Shown piece by piece: positions 29,870 through 52,660 of a stretch of DNA of 53,312 nucleotides (the stretch's first letter is position 1; every line of letters begins with the position of its first letter). Under the pieces are notes generated by a model that was given only the letters and a program-made list of their open reading frames with translations, was not told where the DNA came from and ran no database searches. The position numbers and the translations under genes are program-made. The DNA is from Prevotella sp. (GTDB lineage Bacteria > Bacteroidota > Bacteroidia > Bacteroidales > Bacteroidaceae): contig JAFRYZ010000034.1 in assembly GCA_017442825.1 (NCBI GenBank), positions 1 to 53,312 of the forward strand. The letters are read 5' to 3'.

Positions 29870-29994
29870 TACCAAACTGTGGTAAGGCTATTACCAAACT
29901 GTGGTACGACAATTACCAAGCTGTGGTACGGCGCGTACCAAACTGTGGTAACGAGCATACCAAGCTATGATACGGCAAATACCAAAGTGTGGTT
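29870..29994. repeat. Six-unit tandem array, exact 22-bp period, with internal inverted repeat
   Basis: Units start at 29870, 29892, 29914, 29936, 29958 and 29980. Each contains TACCA-N5-TGGTA (for example TACCAAACTGTGGTA); unit 5 ends TGATA and unit 6 ends TGGTT. Between cores lie 7-bp degenerate spacers such as CGGCGCG. It sits in a 417-bp gene-free stretch (29678-30094) between the IS3 remnant and the end of nqrF. Apart from this array and two hairpins I see nothing else there. It is not CRISPR: there are no unique spacers. Confidence 0.88.
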
Positions 29995-30006
29995 TTTCAA
30001 CGAATT

Positions 30007-30037
30007 ATCCCCAAATCGCATAAAACGATTTGGGGAT
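30007..30037. terminator. 12-bp perfect hairpin downstream of nqrF
   Basis: ATCCCCAAATCG (30007-30018) pairs with CGATTTGGGGAT (30026-30037) around a 7-nt loop. It lies about 60 bp after the nqrF stop on the minus strand. No T-tract follows on either side, so it may terminate weakly or protect the mRNA 3' end. Confidence 0.55.
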
Positions 30038-30041
30038 GATG

Positions 30042-30075
30042 TTTGTTCTGCCATTCGCTGCTTGCAGCGAACAAA
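30042..30075. other. Second hairpin just after nqrF
   Basis: TTCGCTGC (30054-30061), TT, GCAGCGAA (30064-30071) is a perfect 8-bp stem. An outer TTTGTTC/GAACAAA pair (30042-30048, 30069-30075) offers an alternative fold. With 30007-30037 it forms a double-hairpin 3' end for the nqr operon. Confidence 0.5.
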
Positions 30076-30094
30076 ATCTGATGAGCAGGAGTTT

Positions 30095-31363
30095 TTATCC
30101 GCCGAAGTTATCGTACATGATGCTTTCAGACTCAACGCCGAGGGAGTCGAGCATCTGGACAACAGCGTTGGACATGGGGCCGGGGCCGCACATGTAGTAC
30201 TCGATGTCTTCGGGAGCCTCGTGGTCCTTGAGGTAGGTTTCGTACATCACCTGATGGACGAATCCCGGTGTGTACTTCACTCCTGCGGCATCGGCTGCAG
30301 GGTCTGGACGGTCGAGAGCCAGATGGAAGTGGAAGTTCTTGAACTCCTTCTCCAGCGAGTGGAAGTCGTCGAGGTAGAAGACTTCGTTCAGGGCGCGTGC
30401 TCCGTAGAAGTAGTGCATCTCGCGGTCTGTCGTGTTCAGCGTCTTCGTCATGTGCATAATCTGAGCGCGCAAAGGTGCCATACCTGCACCGCCGCCGACC
30501 CATATCATTTCCTTCTTCGTGTCGAAGTGCGGGTGGAAGTCGCCGAAAGGTCCGCTCATAATCACCTTGTCGCCGGGCTTCAGCGAGAAGATGTATGACG
30601 AAGCTATACCCGGATTGACATCCATGAATCCGCTCTTGTCAGCCTTGAACGGCGGTGTTGCAATACGTACGGTAAGCATGAACACATCACCCTCAGCTGG
30701 ATAGTTAGCCATTGAATAGGCACGAATGGTAGGTTCAGGATTCTTACACTTTAAGTCGAACATTTTGAATTTCTCCCATGCCGGCTGGTATTCGTCTGTG
30801 ATGAGCTCACGGTCGAAGTCCTTGCCGTAGTCGATGCAGTCGAAAGCTGGAATCTTGATCTGTGCATACGAACCTGGCAGGAAGTCCATGTGCTCTCCGG
30901 CAGGCAGCTGTACCTTGAATTCCTTGATGAAGGTGGCGACGTTCTTGTTGCTGATGACCGTACACTCGTACTCCTTCACGCCCAGGATACTTTCGTCTAC
31001 GTGAATCTTCAGGTCGCCCTTGACCTTGCACTGGCAGCCCAGACGCCAGCCCGACTTGATTTCCTTACGGGTGAAGTGGGGCTTCTCGGAGTCGAGAATC
31101 TCGCCGCCGCCTTCGAGCACCTGCACCTTGCACTGTCCGCACGAAGCCTTACCACCGCAGGCACTGGGCAGGAAGATGCCGTTCTCGTTGAGTGTCGACA
31201 TGAGTGACGCGCCTTGAGGCACGTTGATGGTGCGGTCGCCATTGATTTCGATGTTCACGTTTCCGCTGGGCGACAGGTATTTCTTTGCCACCAGCAGGAG
31301 AATCACTAAGAGGAGTATCGTAACGAGGAAAACTCCTATGCTAATTCCAATAAATTGTCCCAT
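30095..31363 (-). CDS. nqrF: Na+-translocating NADH:quinone reductase subunit F
   Basis: A 422-residue subunit that accepts electrons from NADH. It has an N-terminal membrane helix (~5-27) and a plant-type 2Fe-2S domain with Cys69, Cys75, Cys78 and Cys110, matching the spacing of the Vibrio protein. An FAD domain (RAYSMANYP) and an NADH-binding domain (GGGAGMAPLRAQI, near residue 295) follow. Electrons pass FAD to 2Fe-2S and on to the membrane subunits. It is the last gene of the six-gene operon, 18 bp after nqrE, followed by two hairpins. Confidence 0.96.
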   Translation of the reverse strand: MGQFIGISIGVFLVTILLLVILLLVAKKYLSPSGNVNIEINGDRTINVPQGASLMSTLNENGIFLPSACGGKASCGQCKVQVLEGGGEILDSEKPHFTRKEIKSGWRLGCQCKVKGDLKIHVDESILGVKEYECTVISNKNVATFIKEFKVQLPAGEHMDFLPGSYAQIKIPAFDCIDYGKDFDRELITDEYQPAWEKFKMFDLKCKNPEPTIRAYSMANYPAEGDVFMLTVRIATPPFKADKSGFMDVNPGIASSYIFSLKPGDKVIMSGPFGDFHPHFDTKKEMIWVGGGAGMAPLRAQIMHMTKTLNTTDREMHYFYGARALNEVFYLDDFHSLEKEFKNFHFHLALDRPDPAADAAGVKYTPGFVHQVMYETYLKDHEAPEDIEYYMCGPGPMSNAVVQMLDSLGVESESIMYDNFGG

Positions 31364-31381
31364 AGTTTTATTTCCTCCTTA

Positions 31382-32008
31382 TTATATGTTTAGTCCGCTG
31401 AAACACATCATTGCCATTGCCATCAGCCCCACGGTGATGAACGTAATGCCGAGGCCCTGGAGTGGACGGGGCACGTCGCTGTACTGCATCTTCTCGCGGA
31501 TGGCACCCATGGCTACGATGGCGAGGGTCCAGCCGATGCCCGAACCAATGGCGTAGGCTACGGCATCGGCGATGCTGGTGATGGCCTGCGAGTTGGAAGG
31601 ATCGAGCAGGATGCGCTGCTGCATGAAGAGCGAGGCTCCCATGATGGCACAGTTGACGGCGATCAGGGGCAGGAAGATGCCGAGTGCCGCATAGAGCGAC
31701 GGGCTGTACTTCTCTACTGCCATCTCTACCAGCTGGACGATGCCGGCGATGACGGCAATGAAGAGGATGAAGCTCAGGTAGCTCAAGTCAACTCCCGGAA
31801 CGAGACAGTCGGGACCCAGCACGCGGGTCTGAAGCAGATAGTCTACGGGGACGGTGACGAGCAGCACGAAGGTGACGGCACAGCCCAGTCCGAGAGAGGT
31901 CTTCACGTTCTTAGACACGGCAAGGAACGAACACATGCCGAGGAAGAAGGCGAAGATCATGTTGTCGACGAATATCGACCGGAAAAACAAACTTATTATA
32001 TGTTCCAT
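31382..32008 (-). CDS. nqrE: Na+-translocating NADH:quinone reductase subunit E
   Basis: A 208-residue integral membrane subunit with six hydrophobic segments, homologous to and pseudo-symmetric with NqrD. The conserved start ([34 protein letters not shown]) contains the membrane Cys near residue 26 that, together with an NqrD Cys, holds the intramembrane iron centre in this complex. It is only 3 bp downstream of nqrD. The long antisense frames here are composition artefacts of GC-richer codons. Confidence 0.95.
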
Positions 32009-32011
32009 ATC

Positions 32012-32635
32012 TTACTTCTCCTTATAAAAATAGGCACGATGTACCCAGATGACACATCCGACGAGTATCAATGCCATGGCGGGCATCGTCATCATACCGT
32101 TGTTGATATAACCTGCGTCATAGACGCTCTGAGGAAGGAGCTGGAAGCCCAGCAGGGAGCCGCGTCCGAAGAACTCGCGGAAGGCTCCGACGATGACCAG
32201 TATCATCGCATAGCCCAGTCCGTTGCCCACACCGTCGAGGAACGACGGCCACGGCTTGTTCATCATGGCGAACGCCTCCAGGCGTCCCATCAGGATACAG
32301 TTGGTGATGATCAGACCAACATAGACAGAGAGCTGGACGCTCACGTCGTAGGCAAACGCCTTCAGCACCTGCGACACGATGGTCACCAGCGCTGCCACGA
32401 CCACAAGCTGCACGATGATACGGATGCGGTTGGGGATGGTGTTGCGGATGATGGAAATAATCACATTGGAGAATGCCGTGATGATGGTTACGGCAAGTCC
32501 CATCACGATGGCCGGCTTCAACTGTGAAGTCACGGCGAGGGCTGAACAAATGCCGAGCACCTGACCAAGTATAGGATGGTCGACGTTCAGCGGATTGGTA
32601 AAGACCTCTTTATTTTGTTTACTGAATAAAGCCAT
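32012..32635 (-). CDS. nqrD: Na+-translocating NADH:quinone reductase subunit D
   Basis: A 207-residue six-helix membrane subunit, partner of NqrE. The N-terminal LGQVLGICSALAVTSQLKPA segment carries the Cys that helps ligate the intramembrane Fe site. Nucleotide composition in nqrD and nqrE is richer in G+C at third positions than in neighbouring genes, a sign of high expression. It starts 53 bp after nqrC, the only sizeable gap inside the operon. Confidence 0.95.
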   Translation of the reverse strand: MALFSKQNKEVFTNPLNVDHPILGQVLGICSALAVTSQLKPAIVMGLAVTIITAFSNVIISIIRNTIPNRIRIIVQLVVVAALVTIVSQVLKAFAYDVSVQLSVYVGLIITNCILMGRLEAFAMMNKPWPSFLDGVGNGLGYAMILVIVGAFREFFGRGSLLGFQLLPQSVYDAGYINNGMMTMPAMALILVGCVIWVHRAYFYKEK

Positions 32636-32688
32636 TAGATTTCACTATTTTTGAGGTTTACTGTTTATGGTTTACAGGTTTTAATTTT

Positions 32689-33300
32689 TTACCTTTTAAA
32701 GAACTTCCCATACTTTTGGATGCAATCCTTCAGCATGTCGCTCACACCGTTGGAGGTCAGCGTAGCACCCGTCACGGCATCCACCTGCGACTGGCTGTCT
32801 TCAACCTTCTTCACTACAGACAATGCCACTTCGTCCGTTCCGTCCTTGAAGAGCTTCTTGCCACGGAACTTCTCCTGCCACGACTGAGAGTCCTTGATTT
32901 CGGCACCAAGGCCGGCAGTCTCGCTCTCGTGGTTGAAGTAGGCTCCATAGACCGTCGCCTTGTCTTCGTTGATGGCGAGGAAGCCGCTGATGCCACCCCA
33001 CAGGCCCATGCCCTTCAGGGGAATAACGTACTTGTCTTTACCGTCAACATTACACTTGTACAGTGTGTTGCCGTCAATCTGCTCTTCGCTCTTGACCACC
33101 TCTTTATACTTGCTTTCAGCAGCTTCGCCGTCCAGCCCGCGGATGTTGAGCGAATAGAGAATCTGCTTCTTCTGGTCGAGCGCTACGTTGGCATCCTGCT
33201 TAGACTTCAGCGCCTGAGACACAAAGGCGAGCAAGAAAGCCACTATCACAACAAGAATTGCTGAATAGATAATCGTATATGTATTACTGTTTGTCTTCAT
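32689..33300 (-). CDS. nqrC: Na+-translocating NADH:quinone reductase subunit C
   Basis: A 203-residue subunit with one N-terminal transmembrane helix (~9-30) and a periplasmic FMN-binding domain. The flavinylation motif is VDAVTGATLTS, with FMN expected on Thr180 through a phosphoester bond added by ApbE. It is shorter than the Vibrio subunit (~255 residues), mainly in the loop regions. It relays electrons from the iron site to NqrB. ApbE is not encoded in this window. Confidence 0.94.
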   Translation of the reverse strand: MKTNSNTYTIIYSAILVVIVAFLLAFVSQALKSKQDANVALDQKKQILYSLNIRGLDGEAAESKYKEVVKSEEQIDGNTLYKCNVDGKDKYVIPLKGMGLWGGISGFLAINEDKATVYGAYFNHESETAGLGAEIKDSQSWQEKFRGKKLFKDGTDEVALSVVKKVEDSQSQVDAVTGATLTSNGVSDMLKDCIQKYGKFFKR

Positions 33301-33315
33301 ACTTTGTCCTCCAAA

Positions 33316-34476
33316 TTATTTATTAGCAACTCGTTTGGCACGCTTCGAGATGTTGCGCTGAACTACGCAATAGTCTATTAGCGGAGCTAACAGATTCATC
33401 AAGAGGATGGCAAGCATCATGCCTTCGGGATAGCCAGGGTTCTTCACACGGATGACGATGGCCATCGCACCAATCAGGAAGCCGTAGACCCACTTGCCAC
33501 ACTCCGTACGAGCTGAGGTCACGGGGTCGGTAGCCATGAAGACGGCACCAAAGGCGAAGCCGCCCAGCACCAAATGCTCATACCAGGGGATAGGCGTCAT
33601 GTCGCCGGCAGCAAACAAGGCTGCCACCACTCCACCGCCGACAAAGACGCTCAGCATGGTCTTCCAGGAAGCAATGCCCGTCCACAACAGCAGCAGGGCA
33701 CCCAAGGCGATGGCTATGACGCTGGTCTCACCGATGGAACCGGGAATCAGACCCGTCACCATGTCGCACAATGAAGCCTGGACGGGCTGGCTGGCACCAA
33801 TCTCGCCCAGCGGCGTAGCCATCGTGAAACCGTCGGGGAGCGTGTTGCCAAGACCGAAGATTTGGTCGGTAGCTACCCACACGCTGTCGCCGCTCATCTT
33901 CTGCGGATAGGAGAAGAAGAGGAATGCACGCGTAATGAGCGCTACGTTGAAGATGTTCATACCCGTGCCACCGAAGATTTCCTTGGCGAAAATCACGGCA
34001 AAGGCAGTGGCGAGGGCAAGTATCCACAACGGACAACCTACGGGGACTATCATCGGAATCAGGATGCCGCTCACGAGGAATCCTTCCTGAATCTCCTCAC
34101 CTTTCCACTGTGCCCAGGCAAACTCGATGCCCAGACCAACGATGTAGCTCACCAAAATCTTGGGAAGTACGGCAAGGAAGCCGTAAAGGAACAGGTCGAA
34201 GAACGAAGCCTGAGCCAGCGTACCGGCAGCAGCATAGTTCTGATAACCCACGTTATACATACCGAACAACAGAGCCGGAATCAAGGCTATCACCACGAAA
34301 CTCATGATGCGCTTCGAGTCGATAGCATCGTGGATGCTCACGCCGCTTTTTGATGTCGTGTTGGGAACGAACAGGAATGTGTCAAAGCCGTCGTAGACAC
34401 TGCGGAAAGCATGCAGTTTTCCGCCTTCCTCAAAGTTCGGCTTGATCTTGTCGAGATATTTTCTTAATGCTTTCAT
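33316..34476 (-). CDS. nqrB: Na+-translocating NADH:quinone reductase subunit B
   Basis: A 386-residue polytopic subunit (about ten membrane segments) that forms the Na+ path and binds riboflavin and covalent FMN. The flavinylation motif is DGFTMATPL, with FMN expected on Thr221. The N-terminal ~50 residues are cytoplasmic. It lies 15 bp before nqrC and 2 bp after nqrA. Confidence 0.95.
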   Translation of the reverse strand: MKALRKYLDKIKPNFEEGGKLHAFRSVYDGFDTFLFVPNTTSKSGVSIHDAIDSKRIMSFVVIALIPALLFGMYNVGYQNYAAAGTLAQASFFDLFLYGFLAVLPKILVSYIVGLGIEFAWAQWKGEEIQEGFLVSGILIPMIVPVGCPLWILALATAFAVIFAKEIFGGTGMNIFNVALITRAFLFFSYPQKMSGDSVWVATDQIFGLGNTLPDGFTMATPLGEIGASQPVQASLCDMVTGLIPGSIGETSVIAIALGALLLLWTGIASWKTMLSVFVGGGVVAALFAAGDMTPIPWYEHLVLGGFAFGAVFMATDPVTSARTECGKWVYGFLIGAMAIVIRVKNPGYPEGMMLAILLMNLLAPLIDYCVVQRNISKRAKRVANK

Positions 34477-34478
34477 CT

Positions 34479-35831
34479 TTATGCATTCTCCTTTCTGAGG
34501 ATGTCGAGACCCTCTCTAACGATTTTCTGAAGTTCCAGTTTAGACGAGTCAACAAACTCAGCCAGGGCAAAGTCCTCGGGAGAAACCTCGTAGATGCCGA
34601 GTTGCTCCTGCTTGTCTATGTCGCCGGCGATGATGGCTTTGATGAGGTATTCGCCGTAGATGTCCATTGGCAGCACCTTGTCGTATTCGCCGCTCATGAT
34701 CATCTTGCGCTCACCACCCTTCACACGGGCGTCGATGGTATACTGCTTGTTCTTGCCGAAGAGCCATGAGAAATAGGAGCGGCTGACGGAGAACTGCTTG
34801 AAGCGAGGCATGATCCAGCCGGCAAACTCGTCGGCATCGTCGCCTTCAGGAATAGCGGTCACCTCTGAGGTGTGGGCACCGAGAAAGTCATCCGCCGTAC
34901 AGGGGCGTCCGGTCAGCGGATTGCCGTTGATGAGACGCACCTTCTTGGCATCGTCTATGTTGCCGTCTACAATCGCAGAGATAGGTGTACCCACCAGTGC
35001 GTCGACGTAAGCCGGCTGCTTCACCTCACTTCCGGCAACGGCAACGGTGCGCAACAGGTTCACCTTGCCTGTATTAAACAGACGACCAAAGAAAATCACA
35101 GCCGTCGGGTCAACTGTCCATACCACCTCACCCTTGTTGACAGGATCAAGGTGATTGACCTGCACACTGACATTTCCTGCAGGACAGGGACCATCGAAAG
35201 CTGTTACTTCGACATCGTTGGCTTTGACTAATGCCTCGGAAGACTGCATCTTACCAATTCCAAGATACACCTTGGCAATCTTTGAGAGTGCAGACAAGCC
35301 TGTCTGGAAATCTTGCTCATTGCCTTTCAACTCTACCTCAAAGTCACCAGCCAAGGGCATGTCACGCAAGGCTGATACGAAAATAGCCTTCGGCGTTGTA
35401 TTTGGGGTTGTCGATACGGCATAAGGAAGTTGGTTGATGTATCCAAACAAACCAGCTTCGAGCAGTTCTTGCTTCACTTCATCTGCAGAAAGAGAACTGA
35501 CAAGATGCTTTCCGAAATCGGTATAAACTTGCTCTTTGTCAGCTTTCACTTTCACGCAGAGCACTTTACGGCGCTCACCACGCACCACAGCGGATACAGT
35601 ACCGCTCACAGGCGAGGCAAACCGTACATCAGGACAGTTCTTGTTTACAAAAAGAGCGTCCCCGGCTTTTACGCTAGCACCTTCACGAACTACGACCTTT
35701 GGCGTCACTCCAACAAAATCATCTGGGACAAGTGCATACTCATCCGCTGGTTTCAATGGCAGTTTCGTCTCAGCCGCATGTCCCTTTAGGTTCACGTTCA
35801 AGCCTTTACGTAACTTGATTACATTTGCCAT
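34479..35831 (-). CDS. nqrA: Na+-translocating NADH:quinone reductase subunit A
   Basis: A 450-residue peripheral cytoplasmic subunit with no membrane helix. It has a barrel-sandwich-like N-terminus (LKGHAAETKLPLKPADEYAL) and the Rnf/Nqr SLBB-like C-terminal half (PTAVIFFGRLFNTGKVN, RPCTADDFLG). It docks on NqrB and contributes to ubiquinone/menaquinone interaction. It is the first gene of the operon; a TAATTTTG box lies 66 bp upstream. The complex exports Na+ while passing electrons from NADH to quinone. Confidence 0.95.
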   Translation of the reverse strand: MANVIKLRKGLNVNLKGHAAETKLPLKPADEYALVPDDFVGVTPKVVVREGASVKAGDALFVNKNCPDVRFASPVSGTVSAVVRGERRKVLCVKVKADKEQVYTDFGKHLVSSLSADEVKQELLEAGLFGYINQLPYAVSTTPNTTPKAIFVSALRDMPLAGDFEVELKGNEQDFQTGLSALSKIAKVYLGIGKMQSSEALVKANDVEVTAFDGPCPAGNVSVQVNHLDPVNKGEVVWTVDPTAVIFFGRLFNTGKVNLLRTVAVAGSEVKQPAYVDALVGTPISAIVDGNIDDAKKVRLINGNPLTGRPCTADDFLGAHTSEVTAIPEGDDADEFAGWIMPRFKQFSVSRSYFSWLFGKNKQYTIDARVKGGERKMIMSGEYDKVLPMDIYGEYLIKAIIAGDIDKQEQLGIYEVSPEDFALAEFVDSSKLELQKIVREGLDILRKENA

Positions 35832-35896
35832 AAATGAAAATATTATTCAGAATTCTTTTACCTTCTCTAATTAATTACCTATATTTAAAGTGGGTG

Positions 35897-35904
35897 CAAA
35901 ATTA
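35897..35904 (-). promoter_or_regulatory. -7 promoter element of the nqr operon
   Basis: The minus strand reads TAATTTTG, an exact -7 match about 66 bp before the nqrA start. No -33 box at the ideal distance is visible. Confidence 0.5.
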
Positions 35905-35943
35905 CTAAAAAACGGGCAATTAAAGCAGAAAAGCAAAGTATTA

Positions 35944-35975
35944 TTTCATGAAAAACAATAATTTTTGTAGTTTTG
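35944..35975 (+). promoter_or_regulatory. Promoter of tamB
   Basis: TTTC (35944-35947), 20 bp, then TAGTTTTG (35968-35975). The -7 match is exact, the -33 match partial. It is divergent from the nqr promoter. Confidence 0.55.
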
Positions 35976-36005
35976 CAATGCGTTTGAAACGTTGAGATTA
36001 CAATT

Positions 36006-40463: not shown

Positions 40464-40464
40464 C

Positions 40465-40472
40465 TACCTTTG
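40465..40472 (+). promoter_or_regulatory. -7 promoter element of the FadL-type gene
   Basis: TACCTTTG is an exact match immediately after the tamB stop and 34 bp before the ATG at 40506. It indicates an independent transcript and excludes an upstream in-frame TTG at 40470 as the start. Confidence 0.55.
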
Positions 40473-40505
40473 CAACGCAATTTATCACCAAAACCAACAA
40501 AAAAC

Positions 40506-41954: not shown

Positions 41955-42024
41955 AAAAGAACACCTCTCGATAAGACTAATAAGATAATTTCTTTTTAAC
42001 TCAAACAAACAAAGCATTTCAACC

Positions 42025-42249: not shown

Positions 42250-42257
42250 CATTAATA

Positions 42258-42289
42258 AAAAAACGCTGTACCGCGGTACAGCGTTTTTT
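42258..42289. terminator. Bidirectional terminator (perfect 32-bp palindrome)
   Basis: Arms of 16 bp (AAAAAACGCTGTACCG and its complement) with T6 on the plus side and T6 on the minus side. It separates the His-rich gene from the convergent GH43 gene. Confidence 0.92.
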
Positions 42290-42309
42290 ATTGAGAAACC
42301 GTAACGTAA

Positions 42310-44118: not shown

Positions 44119-44188
44119 AAGAATTATTATATTATAAGTTAGTATCTAGCGAATCAATTACATATCAGGTTATCATTTATCGAATCAA

Positions 44189-45259: not shown

Positions 45260-45281
45260 CTACTTCATACGTTTGTGAGTG

Positions 45282-45313
45282 CAAAAATACATAAAAAATT
45301 CCATTTTTTGCAA
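45282..45313 (-). promoter_or_regulatory. Promoter of the ATP-grasp gene
   Basis: On the minus strand TTG (45311-45313), 21 bp, then TATTTTTG (45282-45289). The leader is about 17 nt. Confidence 0.55.
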
Positions 45314-45321
45314 GATAAGCG

Positions 45322-45352
45322 TTTGTAAATCGAGAAATAAATACTATCTTTG
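45322..45352 (+). promoter_or_regulatory. Promoter of the AAA ATPase gene
   Basis: TTTG (45322-45325), 19 bp, then TATCTTTG (45345-45352): a consensus-quality match. Transcription should start near 45359, which fixes the start codon at 45375 rather than any upstream ATG. Confidence 0.75.
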
Positions 45353-45374
45353 CCGAATAAAAAATAAAAACACA

Positions 45375-46565
45375 ATGCCAATGGACGCTTTCTTCCGCAC
45401 ACATACCTATTTAGTGGAGCATACGAACGCGCCAGTTCATCGTACCCTGATGGATGAGATAGACTGGAGCGACCGTATGATAGGTATTAAAGGAACAAGG
45501 GGTGTTGGCAAAACCACCTTCCTGCTGCAATACGCTAAAGAAAACTTCGCCTCTACAGACAAGCGTTGTCTTTATGTCAACATGAACAATTTCTATTTCC
45601 AGGGACGAGGCATTGCCGACTTTGCAGGCGAATTTTGCAAGAGAGGTGGTAAGGTGTTGCTGATTGACCAAGTCTTCAAACAGCCAGAATGGAGCAAGGA
45701 ATTGCGCAAATGCTACGATTTGTATCCCAACTTGAAAATCATCTTCACCGGTTCGAGTGTGATGCGACTGAAGGAAGAAAACCCAGAGCTGAACGGCATT
45801 GTGAAGAGTTACAATTTGCGTGGCTTTTCTTTCCGTGAATACTTGAACCTGCAGACTGGAAACAACTTTGAGGCATACACGCTGGACGAGATACTCAACG
45901 ACCACGAGCGTATCATCAAGAAGATACTGCCTAAGGCAAGTCCTGCCGCACATTTCCAGAACTACATCCATCATGGTTTCTACCCCTTCTTTCTGGAGCA
46001 TCGCAATTTCTCCGAGAATCTGCTTAAGACCATGAACATGATGACAGAAGTGGACATCCTGCTTATCAAGCAGATGGAACTGAAATACCTCACGAAAATC
46101 AAGAAACTGTTCTATATGCTGGCGGTAGATGGACCGAAAGCGCCCAATGTGAGCCAATTGGCTCACGACATCCAGACAAGCCGTGCAACAGTTATGAACT
46201 ATATCAAGAACCTTGCCGATGCTCGACTAATCAATATGATTTACCCCGTAGGACAGGAATATCCCAAGAAACCAGCTAAAGTGATGATGCACAACTCCAA
46301 CCTGATGTATGCGATCTATCCCAACCGGGTTGAGAAGCAAGATCTCATGGAGACATTCTTTGTCAATGCTTTGTGGAAAGACCATAAAGTAAACAACGGA
46401 GCGAAAGCAGAATACTACATCGTAGATCAAGTGAAGAAGTTCCGTATTTGCGATGCGGAGAATCCGAAGATGCGATACAATTCCGACACCATCTACGCCC
46501 GTTACAATACTGAAGTTGGCAAAGACAATCGCATACCATTGTGGCTATTGGGATTCCTCTATTAG
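45375..46565 (+). CDS. AAA ATPase (AAA_14 type) with C-terminal DUF4143-like domain
   Basis: A 396-residue protein with an N-terminal P-loop GTRGVGKT (residues 40-47) and sensor-1 IIFTGSSVMRL. The C-terminal half contains a winged-helix-like segment (SQLAHDIQTSRATVMNYIKN) and a DUF4143-type end. The Walker B reads VLLIDQVFK, so Gln99 occupies the position of the usual catalytic Glu (gac caa at 45666-45671). Such stand-alone ATPases are multicopy in Prevotella and have no known role. Start 45375 is set by the promoter. It is followed by the CTAG repeat array and the PFOR gene. Confidence 0.82.
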   Translation: MPMDAFFRTHTYLVEHTNAPVHRTLMDEIDWSDRMIGIKGTRGVGKTTFLLQYAKENFASTDKRCLYVNMNNFYFQGRGIADFAGEFCKRGGKVLLIDQVFKQPEWSKELRKCYDLYPNLKIIFTGSSVMRLKEENPELNGIVKSYNLRGFSFREYLNLQTGNNFEAYTLDEILNDHERIIKKILPKASPAAHFQNYIHHGFYPFFLEHRNFSENLLKTMNMMTEVDILLIKQMELKYLTKIKKLFYMLAVDGPKAPNVSQLAHDIQTSRATVMNYIKNLADARLINMIYPVGQEYPKKPAKVMMHNSNLMYAIYPNRVEKQDLMETFFVNALWKDHKVNNGAKAEYYIVDQVKKFRICDAENPKMRYNSDTIYARYNTEVGKDNRIPLWLLGFLY

Positions 46566-46583
46566 CAGGAAGATCGAGAAAAG

Positions 46584-46640
46584 CCTAGAAATTCTCTAGA
46601 AAAGCCTAGGAAAGCCTAGACATACCTAGAAGAACCTAGT
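46584..46640. repeat. CTAG-motif array with ~10-bp spacing before nifJ
   Basis: Six [C/T]CTAG motifs begin at 46584, 46595, 46605, 46615, 46625 and 46635 (spacings 11, 10, 10, 10, 10), in a context like AAAGCCTAGA. They start 19 bp after the ATPase stop and end about 65 bp before the nifJ ATG. The nifJ promoter was not identifiable by consensus in this 141-bp gap. A shorter TCTAG pair (22027, 22036) occurs before the 50-residue gene. Confidence 0.7.
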
Positions 46641-46706
46641 ACAAAAAAGAGAATCGAGAACAATTAACATTATACATTAACATTAACAACCAATTAGTAA
46701 AACAAA

Positions 46707-49700
46707 ATGGCTAAAGAAAAAAAGTTTATCACTTGTGATGGTAACGAGGCTGCTGCTCACGTGAGCTATATGTTCTCCGAAGTAGCTGCCATCTATCCTA
46801 TCACTCCGTCTTCGCCAATGGCGGAGCATGTTGATGAGTGGGCTGCCCGCGGTCGTAAGAACCTTTGGGGACAGAACGTAAGCGTACAGGAAATGCAGTC
46901 AGAAGGTGGTGCTGCCGGTGCTCTTCACGGATCACTGCAGGCTGGTGCCCTGACAACAACCTTCACCGCTTCTCAGGGTCTGTTGCTCATGATTCCTAAC
47001 ATGTATAAGATTGCAGGTGAGATGCTTCCTTGCGTTTTCGACGTTTCTGCTCGTACGCTTGCTTCTCACTCTCTCTGTATCTTTGGCGACCATCAGGATG
47101 TTATGGCTTGCCGCCAGACTGGTTTCGCTATGTTCTGCTCTGGTTCTGTTCAGGAGGTTATGGACCTTACTGCTGTTCCTCACCTGGCAACTCTGAAGAC
47201 TGAGATTCCATTCGTTAACTTCTTCGACGGTTTCCGTACTTCTCACGAGTACCACAAGATTGAAGTAATGGATCAGGAAGACATCGCCAAGCTCGTTGAT
47301 CCGGCTGACGTTGAGCGTTTCCGCAACCGTGCACTCACTCCTGAGCGCCCAATGACTCGCGGTACTGCTGAGAACCCAGAGACCTTCTTCACACACCGTG
47401 AGGCATGCAACGCTGCTTACGACAAGGTACCTGAGGTTGTCGAGTACTATCTGAACAAGATTAGCGAAATCACTGGTCGTGAGTATCACCTCTTCGACTA
47501 CTACGGCGCCAAGGATGCTGACCGTGTTATCATCCTGATGGGTTCTGCTACAGAGGCAGCTCGCGAGGCTATTGACTACCTGACCGCTCAGGGCGAAAAG
47601 GTTGGTATGGTTGCCGTTCACCTCTATCGTCCGTTCTCAGTCAAGCACCTGCTCGCTGCTGTTCCTAAGACAGCAAAGCGCATCGCCGTGCTCGACCGTA
47701 CGAAGGAGCCAGGAGCAGAGGGTGAACCTCTGTATCTCGATGTAAAGAGTGCATTCTACGATGTAGAAGACAAGCCTCTGATTGTCGGCGGTCGCTATGG
47801 TCTCGGTTCTTCCGACACCACACCTGCTAAGATTATCGCCGTCTTCAAGAACCTTGCTCTCAACGAGCCGAAGAACCACTTCACCGTTGGTATCGTTGAC
47901 GACGTTACCTTCACCTCTCTCCCAGAGGAAGAAGAAATCGCAATGGGTGGTGCTGGCATGTTCCAGGCTAAGTTCTATGGTCTGGGTGCTGACGGTACCG
48001 TTGGTGCCAACAAGAACTCTGTGAAAATTATCGGTGACTCTACCGACAAGTACTGCCAGGCATACTTCTCTTATGACTCTAAGAAGTCTGGTGGTTTCAC
48101 CTGTTCTCACCTCCGTTTCGGTGACACTCCTATCCGTTCTACCTATCTGGTAACAACACCTAACTTCGTTGCTTGCCACGTTCAGGCTTACCTCCACATG
48201 TACGACGTTACTCGTGGTCTGCAGAAGAACGGAACCTTCCTGTTGAACACTATCTTCGAAGGTGAGGAGCTGGCTAACTTCATGCCTAACAAGGTAAAGC
48301 GCTACTTCGCTCAGAACAACATCACCGTTTATACCATCAACGCTACGAAGATTGCTCAGGAGATTGGTCTCGGCAACCGTACTAACACCATCCTCCAGTC
48401 TGCATTCTTCCGCATCACGGGCGTTATCCCCGTTGACCTCGCCGTTGAGCAGATGAAGAAGTTCATCGTGAAGTCTTACGGCAAGAAGGGTGAGGATGTT
48501 GTCAACATGAACTACGCAGCAGTTGACCGCGGTGACGAGTACAAGAAGTTCGACGTTGATCCCGCATGGGCTAACCTCGCTGACGACGCTGAGCAGGCTG
48601 ACGACGCTCCCGCATTCGTTAAGGAACTTGTTCGTCCTATCAACGCACAGGCTGGTGACCTGCTGAAGGTTTCCGACTTCGTGAAGTTCGACACCGTTGA
48701 CGGTTCTTGGGCTAACGGTACTGCCGCTTACGAGAAGCGCGGTGTTGAGGCATTCGTTCCCGTTTGGAACTCAGAGAACTGTATCCAGTGTAACAAGTGT
48801 GCATTCGTTTGTCCTCACGCAGCTATCCGTCCGTTCGTTCTGACTGACGAGGAAATGGCTAAGTTCGACTTCGACGCTATCACCATGAAGGCTCCGAAGG
48901 CTATGGCAGGCATGCACTTCCGTATTGAGACTTCTGTTCTCGACTGTCTGGGCTGCGGCAACTGTGCCGACGTTTGTCCGGGCAACCCGAAGACAGGCAA
49001 GGCCCTCCAGATGGTTCCGTTCAATCCGGACGCTGAGGATATGAAGAAGGAGGCACAGAACTGGGATCGCCTCGTCAAGGAAGTAACCTCTAAGCAAGAT
49101 CTCGTTGACATCAAGAGCAACGTGAAGAACTCTCAGTTCGCACAGCCGCTCTTCGAGTTCTCTGGCGCATGCTCTGGTTGCGGTGAGACTCCTTACGTGA
49201 AGCTCATCTCTCAGCTCTTCGGTGACCGTGAGATGATTGCTAACGCAACAGGTTGCTCTTCAATCTATTCTGCTTCTATCCCGTCAACACCTTACACCAC
49301 CAACGCTAAGGGTCAGGGTCCTGCATTCGACAACTCACTGTTCGAGGACTTCTGCGAGTTCGGTATGGGTATGGTACTCGGTAACAAGAAGATGAAGGAG
49401 CGCGTAACTATGTTGCTCAAGGAAGCTTGCGAGAAGTGCGACGTTACTCCCGAATACAAGGCTCTTGCCGAAGAGTGGATTGCTAACCAGGAGGATGCAG
49501 AAAAGACCAAGGAGATTGCTCCGAAGCTGAAGGCTGAGATTGACGCATGCGCAGCTAAGGGATGCCCAATCTGCAAGGAACTGCAGACCCTCGACCACTA
49601 TCTCATCAAGCGCAGCCAGTGGATCATCGGCGGTGACGGTGCTTCTTACGACATCGGCTACGGCGGTCTCGACCACGTGATTGCTTCCGGTGAAGATGTC

Positions 49701-50279
49701 AACCTCCTCGTACTCGATACAGAGGTTTACTCTAATACTGGTGGTCAGGCTTCTAAGGCTACTCCGCTCGGTGCCATCGCACAGTTCGCTGCTCAGGGTA
49801 AGCGTATCCGCAAGAAGGACCTCGGTATGATTGCTACTTCTTACGGCTATGTATATGTTGCTCAGGTGGCTATGGGTGCCGACAATGCTCAGTGCCTGAA
49901 GGCTATCCGCGAGGCAGAAGCATATCCTGGACCATCACTCGTCATCGCTTACGCTCCATGTATCAACCACGGTCTGAAGATCAAGGGTGGCATGGGTCGC
50001 AGCCAGGCTGAGGAAGGTCGCGCCGTTGAGTGTGGTTACTGGCACCTGTGGCGTTACAACCCACAGCTGGCAGAGGAAGGCAAGAACCCGTTCTCACTCG
50101 ACTCTAAGGAGCCCGATTGGGATAAGTTCCACGACTTCCTCCTCGGTGAGGTTCGTTATCTGTCAGTTAAGAAGGCTTATCCTAACGAGGCAGAAGAGCT
50201 CTTCGCCGAGGCTAAGCGCATGGCACAGCTCCGTTACAAGAGCTATGTTCGCAAAGCTGCAGAAGACTGGAGTGAGTAA
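46707..50279 (+). CDS. nifJ: Pyruvate:ferredoxin (flavodoxin) oxidoreductase
   Basis: A 1190-residue single-chain enzyme that oxidatively decarboxylates pyruvate to acetyl-CoA and CO2, reducing ferredoxin or flavodoxin. The domain order is pyrimidine-binding (MSEGGAA-like MQSEGGAAG), C-terminal transketolase-like, gamma, then a two-cluster ferredoxin domain (CIQCNKCAFVCP ~691 and CLGCGNCADVCP ~748). The TPP domain follows with the third-cluster CSGCGE (~823) and the TPP-binding GDGASYDIGYGG. Length matches the family. Codon use is strongly biased (GCT, CGT, AAG, GAG), so it is highly expressed. It is oxygen-sensitive and central to anaerobic energy metabolism. Confidence 0.96.
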   Translation: MAKEKKFITCDGNEAAAHVSYMFSEVAAIYPITPSSPMAEHVDEWAARGRKNLWGQNVSVQEMQSEGGAAGALHGSLQAGALTTTFTASQGLLLMIPNMYKIAGEMLPCVFDVSARTLASHSLCIFGDHQDVMACRQTGFAMFCSGSVQEVMDLTAVPHLATLKTEIPFVNFFDGFRTSHEYHKIEVMDQEDIAKLVDPADVERFRNRALTPERPMTRGTAENPETFFTHREACNAAYDKVPEVVEYYLNKISEITGREYHLFDYYGAKDADRVIILMGSATEAAREAIDYLTAQGEKVGMVAVHLYRPFSVKHLLAAVPKTAKRIAVLDRTKEPGAEGEPLYLDVKSAFYDVEDKPLIVGGRYGLGSSDTTPAKIIAVFKNLALNEPKNHFTVGIVDDVTFTSLPEEEEIAMGGAGMFQAKFYGLGADGTVGANKNSVKIIGDSTDKYCQAYFSYDSKKSGGFTCSHLRFGDTPIRSTYLVTTPNFVACHVQAYLHMYDVTRGLQKNGTFLLNTIFEGEELANFMPNKVKRYFAQNNITVYTINATKIAQEIGLGNRTNTILQSAFFRITGVIPVDLAVEQMKKFIVKSYGKKGEDVVNMNYAAVDRGDEYKKFDVDPAWANLADDAEQADDAPAFVKELVRPINAQAGDLLKVSDFVKFDTVDGSWANGTAAYEKRGVEAFVPVWNSENCIQCNKCAFVCPHAAIRPFVLTDEEMAKFDFDAITMKAPKAMAGMHFRIETSVLDCLGCGNCADVCPGNPKTGKALQMVPFNPDAEDMKKEAQNWDRLVKEVTSKQDLVDIKSNVKNSQFAQPLFEFSGACSGCGETPYVKLISQLFGDREMIANATGCSSIYSASIPSTPYTTNAKGQGPAFDNSLFEDFCEFGMGMVLGNKKMKERVTMLLKEACEKCDVTPEYKALAEEWIANQEDAEKTKEIAPKLKAEIDACAAKGCPICKELQTLDHYLIKRSQWIIGGDGASYDIGYGGLDHVIASGEDVNLLVLDTEVYSNTGGQASKATPLGAIAQFAAQGKRIRKKDLGMIATSYGYVYVAQVAMGADNAQCLKAIREAEAYPGPSLVIAYAPCINHGLKIKGGMGRSQAEEGRAVECGYWHLWRYNPQLAEEGKNPFSLDSKEPDWDKFHDFLLGEVRYLSVKKAYPNEAEELFAEAKRMAQLRYKSYVRKAAEDWSE

Positions 50280-50300
50280 TAATCTCCCCCTTATATCATC

Positions 50301-50333
50301 AAAGGAGCATCCGAAATTCGGGTGCTCCTTTTT
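50301..50333 (+). terminator. Intrinsic terminator of nifJ
   Basis: GGAGCATCCGA (50304-50314) pairs with TCGGGTGCTCC (50318-50328; one G-U), loop AAT, followed by T5. Confidence 0.9.
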
Positions 50334-50444
50334 CCTATATCATCGTGAATTCGGTGTAAAAATAGATGTATAATTATTCCTTTATGTCGTTTGTACTTTT
50401 ATCTGTCCATTGGCATAACAGATTTAATGCTTACATCCTTTTTA

Positions 50445-50789
50445 TTAAAATACTGCCACAATGCGGCGTATGTGTTTGAGTTTCTCCATGAACGAGTCGT
50501 CTCGTTCTGCCATCCTCATGTCGTATTCGTTCTGCATAGCCAGCAGAGGGGCGGCATCCACACCGAGGGCTGCCTCCATCATCATTGCAAGTTCGGGGCT
50601 GAGCGACCGCTTGCCATTCAGCATTTCGTTGAAGGCGGAGTAGGAAATGCCTATCTCCTTAGCCAGTCCGCGTTGCGAAATGCCACGGAATTCCAGTTCG
50701 TCCTTCAACACCTCGCCAGGATGGGTGGGCTGAAAGGGCTTCAAGTTGTTTGCTATCATCTGCGGATTTACTCCTTCAAGTGTCGTCAT
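50445..50789 (-). CDS. higA: HigA-type antitoxin (XRE family)
   Basis: A 114-residue protein with the HigA signature THPGEVLKDELEFRGISQRGLAK, an XRE helix-turn-helix (SQRGLAKEIGISYSAFNEML, ~38-58) and the NGKRSLSPELAMMMEAALG segment. It binds its own promoter and neutralises the toxin encoded 14 bp upstream. The toxin-first order (higB then higA) is typical of HigBA and unlike most toxin-antitoxin pairs. Confidence 0.9.
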   Translation of the reverse strand: MTTLEGVNPQMIANNLKPFQPTHPGEVLKDELEFRGISQRGLAKEIGISYSAFNEMLNGKRSLSPELAMMMEAALGVDAAPLLAMQNEYDMRMAERDDSFMEKLKHIRRIVAVF

Positions 50790-50803
50790 GTTTCGTCCTC
50801 CTT

Positions 50804-51121
50804 CTACTTATAATGGTTTGACAATTCCGTAATGTTACATATTGTGGCTATCTGCTTACCAGCCTCCGTGCCTTCGGTAAACTCAATGCGGTACTGGTCG
50901 TTAACACGTACGGAGGAGATTCCCTCCTTGTCACCGTGCAGTTTCTCGTAGTGCAAGGAGCCGTACTTGGCCAGTCCTAAGACATTCTCCTGCTGTTTCA
51001 TCAGGTTGACAACCTTCACATACTTGCTAACAATCTGAGGTTGGTAACGATGTTTCTTATCACTTGCCTTGCCATCAGTGTAGAGTTGCTGTAGGTATGT
51101 CTGCTTGAATGTAACTATCAT
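50804..51121 (-). CDS. higB: HigB-like RelE-superfamily toxin
   Basis: A 105-residue protein of the RelE/HigB ribosome-dependent mRNA endonuclease superfamily. Features are an N-terminal helix, KYGSLHYEKLHGDKEGISSVRV and DQYRIEFTEGT (core beta strands with catalytic basic residues), and a C-terminal ICNITELSNHYK. The start at 51121 (MIVTFKQTYL) is chosen over an ATG at 51151. The promoter's -7 box ends at 51129, so the longer frame would lie upstream of the transcript, and the mRNA would be leaderless or nearly so. The pair forms a stabilisation or stress module. Confidence 0.87.
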   Translation of the reverse strand: MIVTFKQTYLQQLYTDGKASDKKHRYQPQIVSKYVKVVNLMKQQENVLGLAKYGSLHYEKLHGDKEGISSVRVNDQYRIEFTEGTEAGKQIATICNITELSNHYK

Positions 51122-51128
51122 TTGAGCG

Positions 51129-51160
51129 CAAAGATACGATAATCCATTCATGTTCGCAAA
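51129..51160 (-). promoter_or_regulatory. Promoter of higBA
   Basis: The minus strand has TTTG (51157-51160), 20 bp, then TATCTTTG (51129-51136). The start codon lies within about 8 bp of the -7 box. Confidence 0.72.
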
Positions 51161-51171
51161 TTTATGAACAA

Positions 51172-51258
51172 CTATTTAAGAAAAATGATAGTATCTTCAG
51201 AGAGAACACCAATCTTCAGCTCCTCAGGCAATAGTCCTGCATAGTCGGCGTCGAAGTC
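51172..51258 (-). pseudogene. Possible 28-codon gene remnant upstream of higB
   Basis: The minus-strand frame reads DFDADYAGLLPEELKIGVLS and on to a stop (TAG at 51172-51174), preceded by an in-frame TAG (51259-51261). It has protein-like composition but no start. It may be the C-terminal stub of a deleted gene; I do not recognise the family. Confidence 0.35.
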
Positions 51259-51290
51259 CTACCTACACTCTTAACTGCAAAAACAATCTC

Positions 51291-51347
51291 AAATCGGCTC
51301 AATGTGGATATAAAATCGGCTCAAATTCTTGCAGATTTGAGCCGATT
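51291..51347. repeat. 22-bp direct repeats and 13-bp hairpin upstream of superoxide dismutase
   Basis: AAATCGGCTCAA occurs at 51291 and 51313 (22 bp apart), and an inverted copy, ATTTGAGCCGATT, starts at 51335, again 22 bp on. The last two form a perfect 13-bp stem with an 8-nt loop. The array occupies much of the ~290-bp spacer between higB and the superoxide dismutase gene. Confidence 0.8.
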
Positions 51348-51359
51348 ATCGTACATTTG
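51329..51359 (+). promoter_or_regulatory. Upstream promoter candidate for superoxide dismutase
   Basis: TTG (51329-51331), 20 bp, then TACATTTG (51352-51359). It overlaps the hairpin's right arm. A second -7 match, TATATTTG, is at 51401-51408, closer to the ATG at 51441. Confidence 0.45.
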
Positions 51360-51400
51360 TGAGTTGATTTAATCCAAAACAAGTAAGGATAAGAACATGG

Positions 51401-51408
51401 TATATTTG
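51401..51408 (+). promoter_or_regulatory. Proximal -7 element for superoxide dismutase
   Basis: TATATTTG is an exact -7 match about 32 bp before the ATG. The -33 region is not clear. Confidence 0.45.
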
Positions 51409-51440
51409 CACAAAAATAAATAAACAAAAACGAAAGCGAT

Positions 51441-52052
51441 ATGAAGAAGTTTGAATTGATAACGCTCCCCTACGCTGAGGACGCATTGGAGCCGGTGATT
51501 AGCAGCGAAACAATAGGCTTCCATTACGGCAAGCACCTGCTGACATATGTAAACAACTTAAATGCACTGCTTTCAAATACTCCGATGGAAGGACTGCCGC
51601 TGGAAGAGATTGTCAAGAAGGCTGAGGGCGGAATATTGAACAACGCAGGACAGATTCTCAACCATGAGATGTATTTTCTGCAGTTTAAGCATCCAACAGA
51701 AAACAACATTCCGACGGGAACAATTGCCGATGCCATCATGAACAACTTCGGTTCGTTTGACGCCTTCAAGGAAGAGTTTCAGAAAAAAGGCACAACCCTG
51801 TTCGGCTCCGGATGGGTATGGCTCTCAGCAGACCAGAACGGCAACCTCATCATCACACAAGAGACCAATGCCGCCAACCCCATTCAAAAGGGTCTCACCC
51901 CGTTGCTTACCTTCGACGTATGGGAGCATGCCTACTACCTGGACTATCAGAACCGACGTGCCGACCACCTTGCTGCCCTCTGGCAGATTGTCGATTGGGA
52001 CATCATTGAGCAACGCTACCGTCGTCACCATGATGCCATCACTTCCAAGTAG
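51441..52052 (+). CDS. sodB: Superoxide dismutase, iron or cambialistic type
   Basis: A 203-residue Fe/Mn superoxide dismutase. The metal ligands are His28 (FHYGKH), His75 (ILNHEMYF), Asp159 and His163 (FDVWEHAYY). Gln71, four residues before the second His, is the position used by iron enzymes, so Fe is preferred, though Bacteroidales enzymes are often cambialistic. It converts superoxide to peroxide, then handled by rubrerythrin and others. The 3' end overlaps the convergent TIGR04076 gene by 28 bp. Confidence 0.95.
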   Translation: MKKFELITLPYAEDALEPVISSETIGFHYGKHLLTYVNNLNALLSNTPMEGLPLEEIVKKAEGGILNNAGQILNHEMYFLQFKHPTENNIPTGTIADAIMNNFGSFDAFKEEFQKKGTTLFGSGWVWLSADQNGNLIITQETNAANPIQKGLTPLLTFDVWEHAYYLDYQNRRADHLAALWQIVDWDIIEQRYRRHHDAITSK

Positions 52053-52375
52053 AAGCTGACGGGGCGGAAGCCGTCGTTACAGCTGATCATCGCACTCATG
52101 GGATTCTTCATCCAACCGTTGTGATATTCAACGGTTCCGTCAGGGGCAACTTTTCGTTCAGCGAAAAAGTTGCCCTCACCACATGCAAGAGACTCTACGA
52201 ACGGACGAACGGAGTCCCATGCCGATGGACAAAAGCCGTCAGGACACTTGCCGTCGACAGAAACCCACTCCTGCCCTATCCTCACATCGCATGCATGCTC
52301 GATGGCATTCTCATATTTTGCCATCAAGTCCTTGTATTCCGTTTGGCGCACCGCCGTAATCCTAACCTTGTTCAT
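52025..52375 (-). CDS. TIGR04076 family protein
   Basis: A 116-residue protein with the family's central Cys-rich segment (GKCPDGFCPSAWDSVRPFVE) and a later SLACGEG. Proteins annotated TIGR04076 are small, of unknown biochemical role, with a conserved CPxGxC-like motif that may bind metal or undergo redox chemistry. Its stop lies 28 bp inside the superoxide dismutase gene on the other strand. The upstream region opens into the repeat-rich stretch. Confidence 0.85.
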   Translation of the reverse strand: MNKVRITAVRQTEYKDLMAKYENAIEHACDVRIGQEWVSVDGKCPDGFCPSAWDSVRPFVESLACGEGNFFAERKVAPDGTVEYHNGWMKNPMSAMISCNDGFRPVSFYLEVMASW

Positions 52376-52509
52376 TCCTTTCGTTCTGTTTTTACTTCCT
52401 TCGCCTACAAAGATAACACTTTTCTTTTTCTTCCATCCATAATGGCGAGCAAATAATTTGTCTTTTTGTAGATAAAAAAGGGTGTTTGCATATTTCAGTT
52501 AAGAACGAA

Positions 52510-52660
52510 TTGTATTGCAAGGGCATTGAGTTTGTCTTGCAAAGGGATAGGTTTTGGACGGCAAAAGAGGTGAGTTTGGAACGCAAAGGGATAGGTTTTG
52601 AAAAAGGGGCGTTTTTTGAATCAAAAAGTGGACTTTTTGCAACGAAAAGTGTGCTTTTTC
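52510..52660. repeat. Degenerate tandem array with 22-bp period
   Basis: Units anchored on TTG begin at 52510, 52532, 52554, 52576 and 52598 (exactly 22 bp apart), then 52616, 52637 and 52658 (18, 21, 21 bp). Units 2 and 4 share GCAAAGGGATAGGTT exactly, and units 1 and 3 both end in GAGT, giving a 44-bp higher-order pattern. It lies in the 937-bp gene-free region 52376-53312. Low-complexity peptides in its frames are by-products. Confidence 0.75.

What the first reader, a model, noticed from the sequence alone, without database searches (positions are those of the whole stretch)
29870..52660. A genome-level family of 22-bp intergenic arrays
Three unrelated intergenic regions in 53 kb carry repeats with one period but different sequences. 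A shared period without a shared sequence suggests a common process that makes or reads the arrays, such as a helix-phased DNA-binding factor or a repeat-generating mechanism. This is the strongest candidate here for an undescribed system. No gene next to any array is an obvious partner.
Basis: inference. Interest (0 to 1): 0.75.

Follow-up and report, generated by a model that had tools for sequence, protein, structure and literature searches.

The report
Helix-phased intergenic dyad arrays, IS-targeted
Prevotella-type bacteria carry many short intergenic DNA arrays whose units differ in sequence but repeat every 22 base pairs (two helix turns), and a jumping gene sits beside them in helical register, so something in the cell probably reads the spacing rather than the letters.

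Summary
Arrays at 29866-29993 and 52510-52667 are real (0/2000 shuffles at lag 22 over 44 positions); the third site, before a superoxide dismutase gene (51284-51346), is weak. In samples of 7 same-genus genomes, lag 22 gives 41 intergenic arrays against about 2.6 in shuffled DNA. Units are imperfect palindromes with sequence classes that differ between loci and genomes. G-T and A-C mismatches are equal (143:145), so the symmetry belongs to duplex DNA, not RNA hairpins.

In a second set, drawn by a 27-bp IS-end pattern, 65 of 81 ends face an array, best lag 22 in 63 of those 65. An array copy without the IS and an array flanked by two inward-facing ends (L352) show that arrays came first. IS-end-to-dyad distance is locked to 11 bp (42 arrays not in the first set, R=0.84, p~1e-13).

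Best reading: rows of operator-like dyads, read in register by an unidentified factor and exploited by the IS. Nearest known: REP/BIME with IS1397; P. gingivalis BrickBuilt.

The parts
29411..29677 (+). ORF with the C-terminal end of an IS3-type OrfB transposase (homology 29483-29620); a remnant, the rest of the IS is missing on the left
   Evidence: Pfam rve_3 4.7e-9; tblastn with G186 OrfB, 54% over 46 aa; 227 bp reaching into it are 98% identical to the start of contig C1
29690..29855 (+). right end of the IS3-family element (first called 'leader'); 13 matches of varying length in this genome, with nearly the same right boundary
   Evidence: model R1 hit 29765-29854
29829..29854 (+). terminal 26-bp dyad GTAGTCAAC-TAAAATC-GTTAAACTAC of the IS right end
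   Evidence: RNAalifold consensus of 17 sequences; 2 of its 12 pairs, both in this stem, have a double compensatory change
29866..29993 (.). array A: six 22-bp units, TACCA-N5-TGGTA dyads
30007..30037 (.). 12-bp inverted repeat (ATCCCCAAATCG/CGATTTGGGGAT) between array A and the end of the nqrF-like gene; possible terminator
   Evidence: sequence, by eye; not tested further
51284..51346 (.). two direct half-sites AAATCGGCTCAA 22 bp apart plus one inverted copy, upstream of a Fe/Mn superoxide dismutase gene; operator-like, marginal as an array
   Evidence: (family D20), sequence; gene by Pfam
52510..52667 (.). array B: degenerate 22-bp units (GCAAAGGGATAGGTTTTGGAAC and AAAAAGTGGACTTTTTTGAAAC consensus)
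   Evidence: paralogues at C1:375-726 (89.5% over 352 bp) and C32 (95.9% over 244 bp)
52666..52776 (.). AACACCTACCT-type direct and inverted repeats that follow array B, also found after its C1 paralogue

Best explanation
The arrays are clusters of operator-like dyad sites in double-stranded DNA, mostly three to six units of 22 bp, so the dyads lie on the same face of the helix. A DNA-binding factor (probably a family with several specificities, since sequence classes recur across species) is inferred to occupy them in a row. An IS3-family insertion sequence uses the arrays as landing sites: it lies beside them with its right end facing the array, at a fixed rotational register to the dyad axes and whatever their sequence. 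Shown here: the period, the dyad symmetry at DNA level, arrays that pre-exist the IS in the cases compared, the right-end-in orientation and the 11-bp register. Inferred: that a protein fills the sites, and that the IS transposase reads this protein or the dyad geometry. Function for the host is unknown; operator clusters or nucleoid sites seem likeliest.
For: Period: the intergenic spectrum peaks at 22 and 44; lag 22 is the top lag in 5 of 7 same-genus samples; 41 arrays against a mean of about 2.6 over 20 shuffles (the one shuffle gave 1), and 8 in 901 kb coding. DNA-level dyads: 57 arrays give WC 1153, GU 143, AC 145; 62 arrays of the second set, partly overlapping, give GU 161, AC 142. Fixed layout: nine class-C arrays found by a pattern in this genome, each with four units. 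IS next to arrays: 51 of 63 right ends in hand, then 65 of 81 in a set drawn by pattern, 15 of which overlap the first; 4 of 4 in another genus, G258 (0/500 shuffles each). Arrays first: C32 carries the same array and right flank without the IS end (95.6% over 386 bp with C1); IS ends can be less diverged than the arrays beside them (C1 against C63: 96.9% and 78.2%); the IS sits left of class C at two loci and right of it at three; two right ends face one array in L352. Register: mod 11, R=0.70, n=35, p~3e-8; arrays not in that set, R=0.84, n=42, p~1.5e-13, and one per genome n=25, p~3e-8. Family: IS3 (NCBIfam NF033516, OrfB 204 bits, cut-off 160).
Against: No binding protein was found or sought by profiling. 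Array positions are not conserved: the nqrF 3' region has a lag-22 array in only 3 of 17 other same-genus genomes examined (G007, G012, G016), with unrelated sequences. Some IS ends lack arrays: 16 of 81, 4 of 4 in G186 and 2 of 2 in G336; the one in G277 is ambiguous (25/44 at lag 22, 3/500 shuffles). G103 shows no lag-22 array in its sample. For 22 of 57 arrays the dyad score is within 2.5 standard deviations of shuffled DNA, most of those of G131 among them, and low-scoring arrays were left out of the register test. This genome gives 13 right-end matches but 3 full left-end matches plus one of 28 bp, unexplained. Array-IS modules may have been copied as units within a genome, so insertions within a genome need not be independent; with one array per genome and class and the least favourable representatives the first set gives only p~0.008.
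Confidence: 0.6

Rival explanations
1. The arrays are REP/BIME-like selfish or structural palindromes. The IS and other factors recognise extruded hairpins or cruciforms, or the bare dyad geometry, and no sequence-specific host protein exists.
For: Palindromic units, intergenic position, mosaics of different unit types, fast positional turnover, and IS3-family elements known to target REPs (PMC1525189 passages). GU=AC fits DNA-level palindromes equally well.
Against: Hairpins do not need a strict 22-bp spacing or a fixed unit number (inference). Y1 transposases (RAYTs) were not found in 10 of 20 genomes searched, among them G024, G186, G147 and G131 with arrays; they are present in others with arrays (G002, G016).
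Confidence: 0.22
2. The arrays are neutral minisatellites made by replication slippage that happens to favour two helical turns.
For: Tandem layout, rapid turnover, and a separate 7-bp repeat series in the same intergenic DNA.
Against: The same four-unit layout at nine loci, dyad symmetry, and the IS register. Degenerate arrays keep the period although slippage should need near-identical units (inference).
Confidence: 0.08
3. The array belongs to the mobile element: right end plus array move together, and arrays diverge quickly.
For: Right ends are followed by an array in most cases; solo right ends occur with arrays; left flanks show no clear array in the 4 copies read (best lag 21-23 scores 17-23 of 44, reached by 10 to 382 of 500 shuffles).
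Against: Array and right flank without the IS at C32, IS on either side of class C, two right ends facing one array in L352; G186 IS copies with short direct repeats and no array; arrays in G016 and G024, which have one weak match and no match to the IS end.
Confidence: 0.06
4. The units act as RNA hairpins (3' UTR stabilisers or attenuators).
For: Arrays are somewhat more often between convergent genes (11 of 31 array-bearing intergenic regions, against 48 of 227 of those of 150 bp or more).
Against: No clear G-U preference in either set (143:145, 161:142), though strand choice varying by locus could hide one. Arrays also occur between divergent genes (4 of 31).
Confidence: 0.04

Closest known systems
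REP/BIME palindromic units and the IS3-family IS1397/ISKpn1 that insert in them
   Same: Intergenic palindromic units in clusters, mosaics of unit types, an IS3-family element that targets them (PMC1525189, passages seen)
   Different: Strict 22-bp period with unrelated sequences, mostly three to six units, IS beside the array with one end facing in and at a fixed helical register, arrays also in genomes where no RAYT was found
BrickBuilt of Porphyromonas gingivalis
   Same: Bacteroidales; intergenic tandem 23-nt repeats with a 'leader', in 19 copies (PMC4596501, passages seen)
   Different: One repeat consensus, MITE with IS5-type ends and a tail; here the repeats differ by locus, and the 'leader' is an IS3 right end
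PINSR of Prevotella intermedia
   Same: Non-coding intergenic repeat in about 180 copies in Prevotella, function unknown (PMC4755523, section 3.4 read)
   Different: Reported as one 188-bp consensus, given only in a figure, so it could not be compared
Iterons and multi-operator clusters
   Same: Helix-phased sites about 22 bp apart (recalled, no call)
   Different: Here many loci per genome with many sequences; replication or partition genes beside the arrays were not searched for

Membership tests
IS3 family (the element beside the arrays) | OrfA plus OrfB with DDE integrase core, IS3 model above cut-off | tested here: met
   NF033516 204.2 and 204.8 bits, cut-off 160, for OrfB of G186 and G111; OrfA alone hits the same model with 26.3 and 24.5 bits, under the cut-off; rve domains
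IS3 family (the element beside the arrays) | terminal inverted repeats starting TG and a short target duplication | tested here: met
   three G186 copies (L092, L093, L090; L090 is internally deleted): TGTC...TACA with flanks GTT/GTT, ATTT/ATTT and CAA/CAA, read by eye
REP/BIME | clustered intergenic palindromic units of about 20-40 bp | tested here: met
REP/BIME | GTAG- or CGTC-type tag beside the palindrome | tested here: inconclusive
   no common tag seen by eye in the unit consensuses; no formal search; a GTAG stands in the IS end
REP/BIME | associated Y1 (RAYT) transposase | tested here: not met
   PF01797 absent from the own genome (79% complete) and from 9 more of the 20 genomes searched, several with arrays; present in the other 10, among them G002 and G016
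BrickBuilt | one 23-nt repeat, leader and tail with IS5-like inverted repeats | tested here: not met
   unit length 22, many consensuses; leader is an IS3 right end
PINSR | 188-bp consensus | not testable with these tools
   sequence only in a figure
CRISPR array | identical repeats with unique spacers and cas genes | tested here: not met
   units are contiguous 22-bp dyads without spacers; cas genes were not searched for
Structured RNA of Rfam | match above a gathering score | tested here: not met
   0 matches in the window; the other loci were not searched

The most novel reading that the evidence does not exclude
A Bacteroidales-wide family of DNA-binding proteins with interchangeable sequence specificities polymerises on arrays of dyads spaced exactly two helical turns apart. 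The proteins share a conserved surface to which an IS3 transposase docks, so the IS finds arrays of any sequence by their protein filament and inserts at a fixed rotational angle.
Probability: 0.3. Interest if true: 0.88.

Novelty: new variant of a known kind. Interest (0 to 1): 0.72.

Why it matters
Many repeat families are recognised by sequence. Here the constant is a spacing of two helical turns plus dyad symmetry, while the letters change from locus to locus and species to species. A mobile element that lies in register next to such arrays in records named Prevotella, Leyella, Xylanibacter, Phocaeicola, Mediterranea and Parabacteroides works as a natural probe: some shared physical feature, most simply a bound protein, should be read.

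Tried and rejected
RNA hairpin reading: rejected on the GU/AC counts. CRISPR-leader-like or integron attC-like reading of the conserved block beside array A: dropped once it proved to be an IS3 right end; integron integrases were not searched for. RAYT/REPtron: PF01797 absent from the own genome and from several others with arrays. Array as part of the IS: rejected on the array without IS, either-side insertions and the double-flanked array. Conserved position at nqrF: 3 of 17; one search had picked a wrong ORF in G013, mended, and picked a wrong one in G011, for which stands. Rfam: nothing in the window.

Rows dropped before counts; the loci in hand were those given out (capped lists); ends with more than 7 substitutions in the last 27 bases (for example L041 and L104), with under 120 bases downstream, or repeated were left out, leaving 63. 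Of these, 12 lacked a lag-22 array at 0/100 shuffles: by eye four have 23-bp units (L082, L083, L084, L088), two about 21-22 (L062, L087), L077 is unclear, and L060, L064, L078, L089 and L106 have none. One search used 57 (those 63 less L060, L064, L077, L078, L089, L106); 61 arrays, 36 with dyad score 20 or more, 35 of them at period 22 tested; 62 of 81 fitted, 56 with score 18 or more, 42 of them not in the first set by their first 44 bases; the 25 'one per genome' may include genomes that also gave arrays to the first set. The 'new only' figure printed is wrong by an offset of one base; one search corrects the overlap to 15 of 81. Class names come from regular expressions of my own; 43 of 110 consensuses were unclassified, and the two sets overlap there. 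The gene caller was a simple ORF picker (300 bases or more), so gene-context counts are rough.

Papers: PMC4596501, PMC5771137, PMC1525189 and PMC3733652 seen as passages, PMC4755523 as passages plus section 3.4, others as search listings only. No description of these arrays was seen in the searches (open-licence PMC papers only).
Full report
What is in the window. Array A (29866-29993) has six units at 22-bp steps, TACCA-N5-TGGTA, and array B (52510-52667) is a degenerate array with the same step. Both beat 2000 dinucleotide shuffles over 44 positions; over 22 positions B is reached by 9 of 2000. The third place, before a superoxide dismutase gene (51284-51346), has two direct half-sites 22 bp apart and one inverted copy and is marginal (6/2000 and 57/2000 shuffles). 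The repeat at 46577-46639 has another period.

It is a genome-level property. The window's genome has 2.31 Mb in 69 contigs and is 79% complete. In a 420-kb sample, intergenic DNA matches itself best at lag 22, with 44 and, separately, multiples of 7 next; coding DNA does not. Tandem Repeats Finder gives 19 intergenic rows of period 22 and none in coding DNA. In samples of 7 same-genus genomes together, lag 22 yields 41 intergenic arrays, lag 20 three and lag 23 six, with 21 and 28 raised by the 7-bp series; shuffled DNA gives about 2.6 on average over 20 shuffles. The samples were partly chosen on contigs with hits; without the four stretches holding class-A hits and the window G000 keeps 10 of its 17, and the evenly spaced stretches of G016 and G024 have 7 and 3 against 0.3 each. 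Lag 22 is the top lag in G000, G016, G024, G147 and G131 and third in G186; G103 is led by the 7-bp series and lag 24. Of 6 genomes from other families, G053 shows 23 clearly, G037 weakly, G043 and G050 weak 21-22, and G056 and G059 no peak near 22.

Units are DNA dyads. Class A is TACCA..TGGTA. Class C is AGTACGAAGSCTTCGTACT plus 3 bp. G002 has AGTACT/AGTANT units and G258 has GTTTCCC..GGGAAAC. Among 57 arrays, pairs at the fitted dyads were 1153 Watson-Crick, 143 G-T, 145 A-C and 383 other on the strand fixed by the IS; in 62 arrays of a second, partly overlapping set, G-T 161 and A-C 142. RNA hairpins on that strand would favour G-U; there is no clear asymmetry. Strand choice varying by locus could hide some. 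In 22 of 57 arrays the dyad score lies within 2.5 standard deviations of shuffled DNA, most of those of G131 among them. A pattern search finds class C nine times in the own genome: the first-to-last span is the same 85 bp, four units, at eight places, and four units are seen at the ninth. Over 57 IS-linked arrays the unit number is 2:2, 3:17, 4:22, 5:7, 6:9.

A mobile element next door. Upstream of array A lies a block of about 165 bp with 13 matches in the genome. Its homologue in G186 is the right end of a complete element of about 1.58 kb with orfA and orfB, TG..CA ends and short direct repeats. It belongs to the IS3 family (NF033516, OrfB 204 bits, cut-off 160). In the window only the OrfB C-terminal end (within 29411-29677) and the right end remain. 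The right end closes with a conserved 26-bp dyad in which two pairs show compensatory changes. A sequence-only model of the right end hits 53 of 200 same-genus genomes at E up to 0.01 and 4 of 149 order-wide at E up to 1e-5, own genome included in both.

The IS faces arrays. Of 63 distinct right ends in hand, 51 are followed within 175 bp by a lag-22 array (0/100 shuffles); the misses are listed under Tried and rejected. As a second, differently drawn set, a GTDB scan by a 27-bp end pattern, capped at 80 of at least 116 stretches, gave 81 right ends with enough sequence: 65 of 81 have an array (0/200 shuffles at lags 21-23), and lag 22 is best of lags 15-30 in 63 of those 65; 15 of the 81 overlap the first set. 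Ends with arrays come from records named Leyella stercorea, Xylanibacter ruminicola, Mediterranea, Phocaeicola plebeius and Parabacteroides faecis; the one of Hallella multisaccharivorax has none. All four ends in G258, another genus, have arrays (0/500 shuffles). An IS subgroup ending CAGGAAACTAC has none in G186 (4 of 4) and G336 (2 of 2); G277 is ambiguous.

Arrays came first. Contig C32 holds array C with the same right flank as C1 (95.6% over 386 bp) but no IS end at the place where C1 carries it. At two class-C loci the IS lies left of the array and at three right of it, with its right end inward each time. In L352 two right ends face one array. The IS ends of C1 and C63 are 96.9% identical, the arrays beside them 78.2%. 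Left flanks of four IS copies carry no clear array; the best is 23 of 44 at lag 22 in L182, reached by 10 of 500 shuffles.

Helical register. The distance from the IS end to the dyad axes was fitted on Watson-Crick pairs alone. It clusters modulo 11 bp and not modulo 22: R=0.70, n=35, p~3e-8; one per genome and class, n=18, p~7e-5, with the least favourable representatives p~0.008. In 42 arrays not in the first set, R=0.84, p~1.5e-13, with 27 at the same rounded phase; one per genome, n=25, p~3e-8. The period itself is only loosely fixed by this test: values from 10 to 12 fit nearly as well. Unit and linker dyads alternate every 11 bp, which would explain the 11. The insertion machinery thus appears to see the rotational setting of the array while being indifferent to its letters.

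Mechanism. The simplest account is a row of protein-bound dyads, one per two turns, with the IS transposase docking on the protein or on a structural feature that the dyads share. Recurrence of sequence classes in different genera (TACC..GGTA, TTCCC..GGGAA, TACTnnAGTA) suggests a family of binders with a few specificities; this is inference. The positions turn over: at the nqrF 3' region 3 of 17 other same-genus genomes have a lag-22 array, each of a different sequence, so a conserved regulatory role at a given gene is unlikely. Host function remains open. Gene context leans to convergent regions (11 of 31 against 48 of 227) and away from divergent ones (4 of 31 against 58 of 227), with a crude gene caller and no test of significance.

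Known kinds. It works like REP/BIME arrays that serve as IS targets (IS1397, ISKpn1; PMC1525189 passages), but RAYTs are missing from several genomes with arrays and no tag was seen by eye. BrickBuilt (PMC4596501 passages) shares leader plus 23-nt repeats but has one consensus and IS5-type ends. PINSR could not be compared.

Noticed in passing
intergenic DNA of the own genome; also G059: A second repeat series at multiples of 7 bp (7, 14, 21, 28, 35), nearly as strong as the 22-bp peak in this genome and dominant in G059.
   Followed up: no
L073:1-1900 (G111:C88): A complete IS plus array sits in the middle of inverted arms of about 180 bp that carry ACCTAAC repeats (by eye).
   Followed up: partly
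L051, L062, L262, L267: The last 20-33 bp of the IS right end are duplicated in tandem before the array in several genomes (by eye).
   Followed up: no
own genome: 13 right-end matches but 3 full left-end matches (plus one of 28 bp) of the IS; at three loci read (L032, L039, L040) a solo right end follows a stop codon directly.
   Followed up: partly
29768-29837: GTCRAC boxes recur about every 32 bp (three turns) inside the IS right end (29768, 29800, 29832; by eye).
   Followed up: no
46577-46639: CCTAG-type repeats of period about 10/21/31 before a pyruvate:ferredoxin oxidoreductase gene; similar CTAG-rich repeats in L016 and L019.
   Followed up: no
14600-14839: 75-bp repeat, 3.2 copies, inside an ORF.
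   Followed up: no
C50:84947 and C50:114712 (L237, L239): Two paralogous 175-bp modules (94.9% identical) with array C and a promoter-like stretch, in inverted orientation 30 kb apart.
   Followed up: partly
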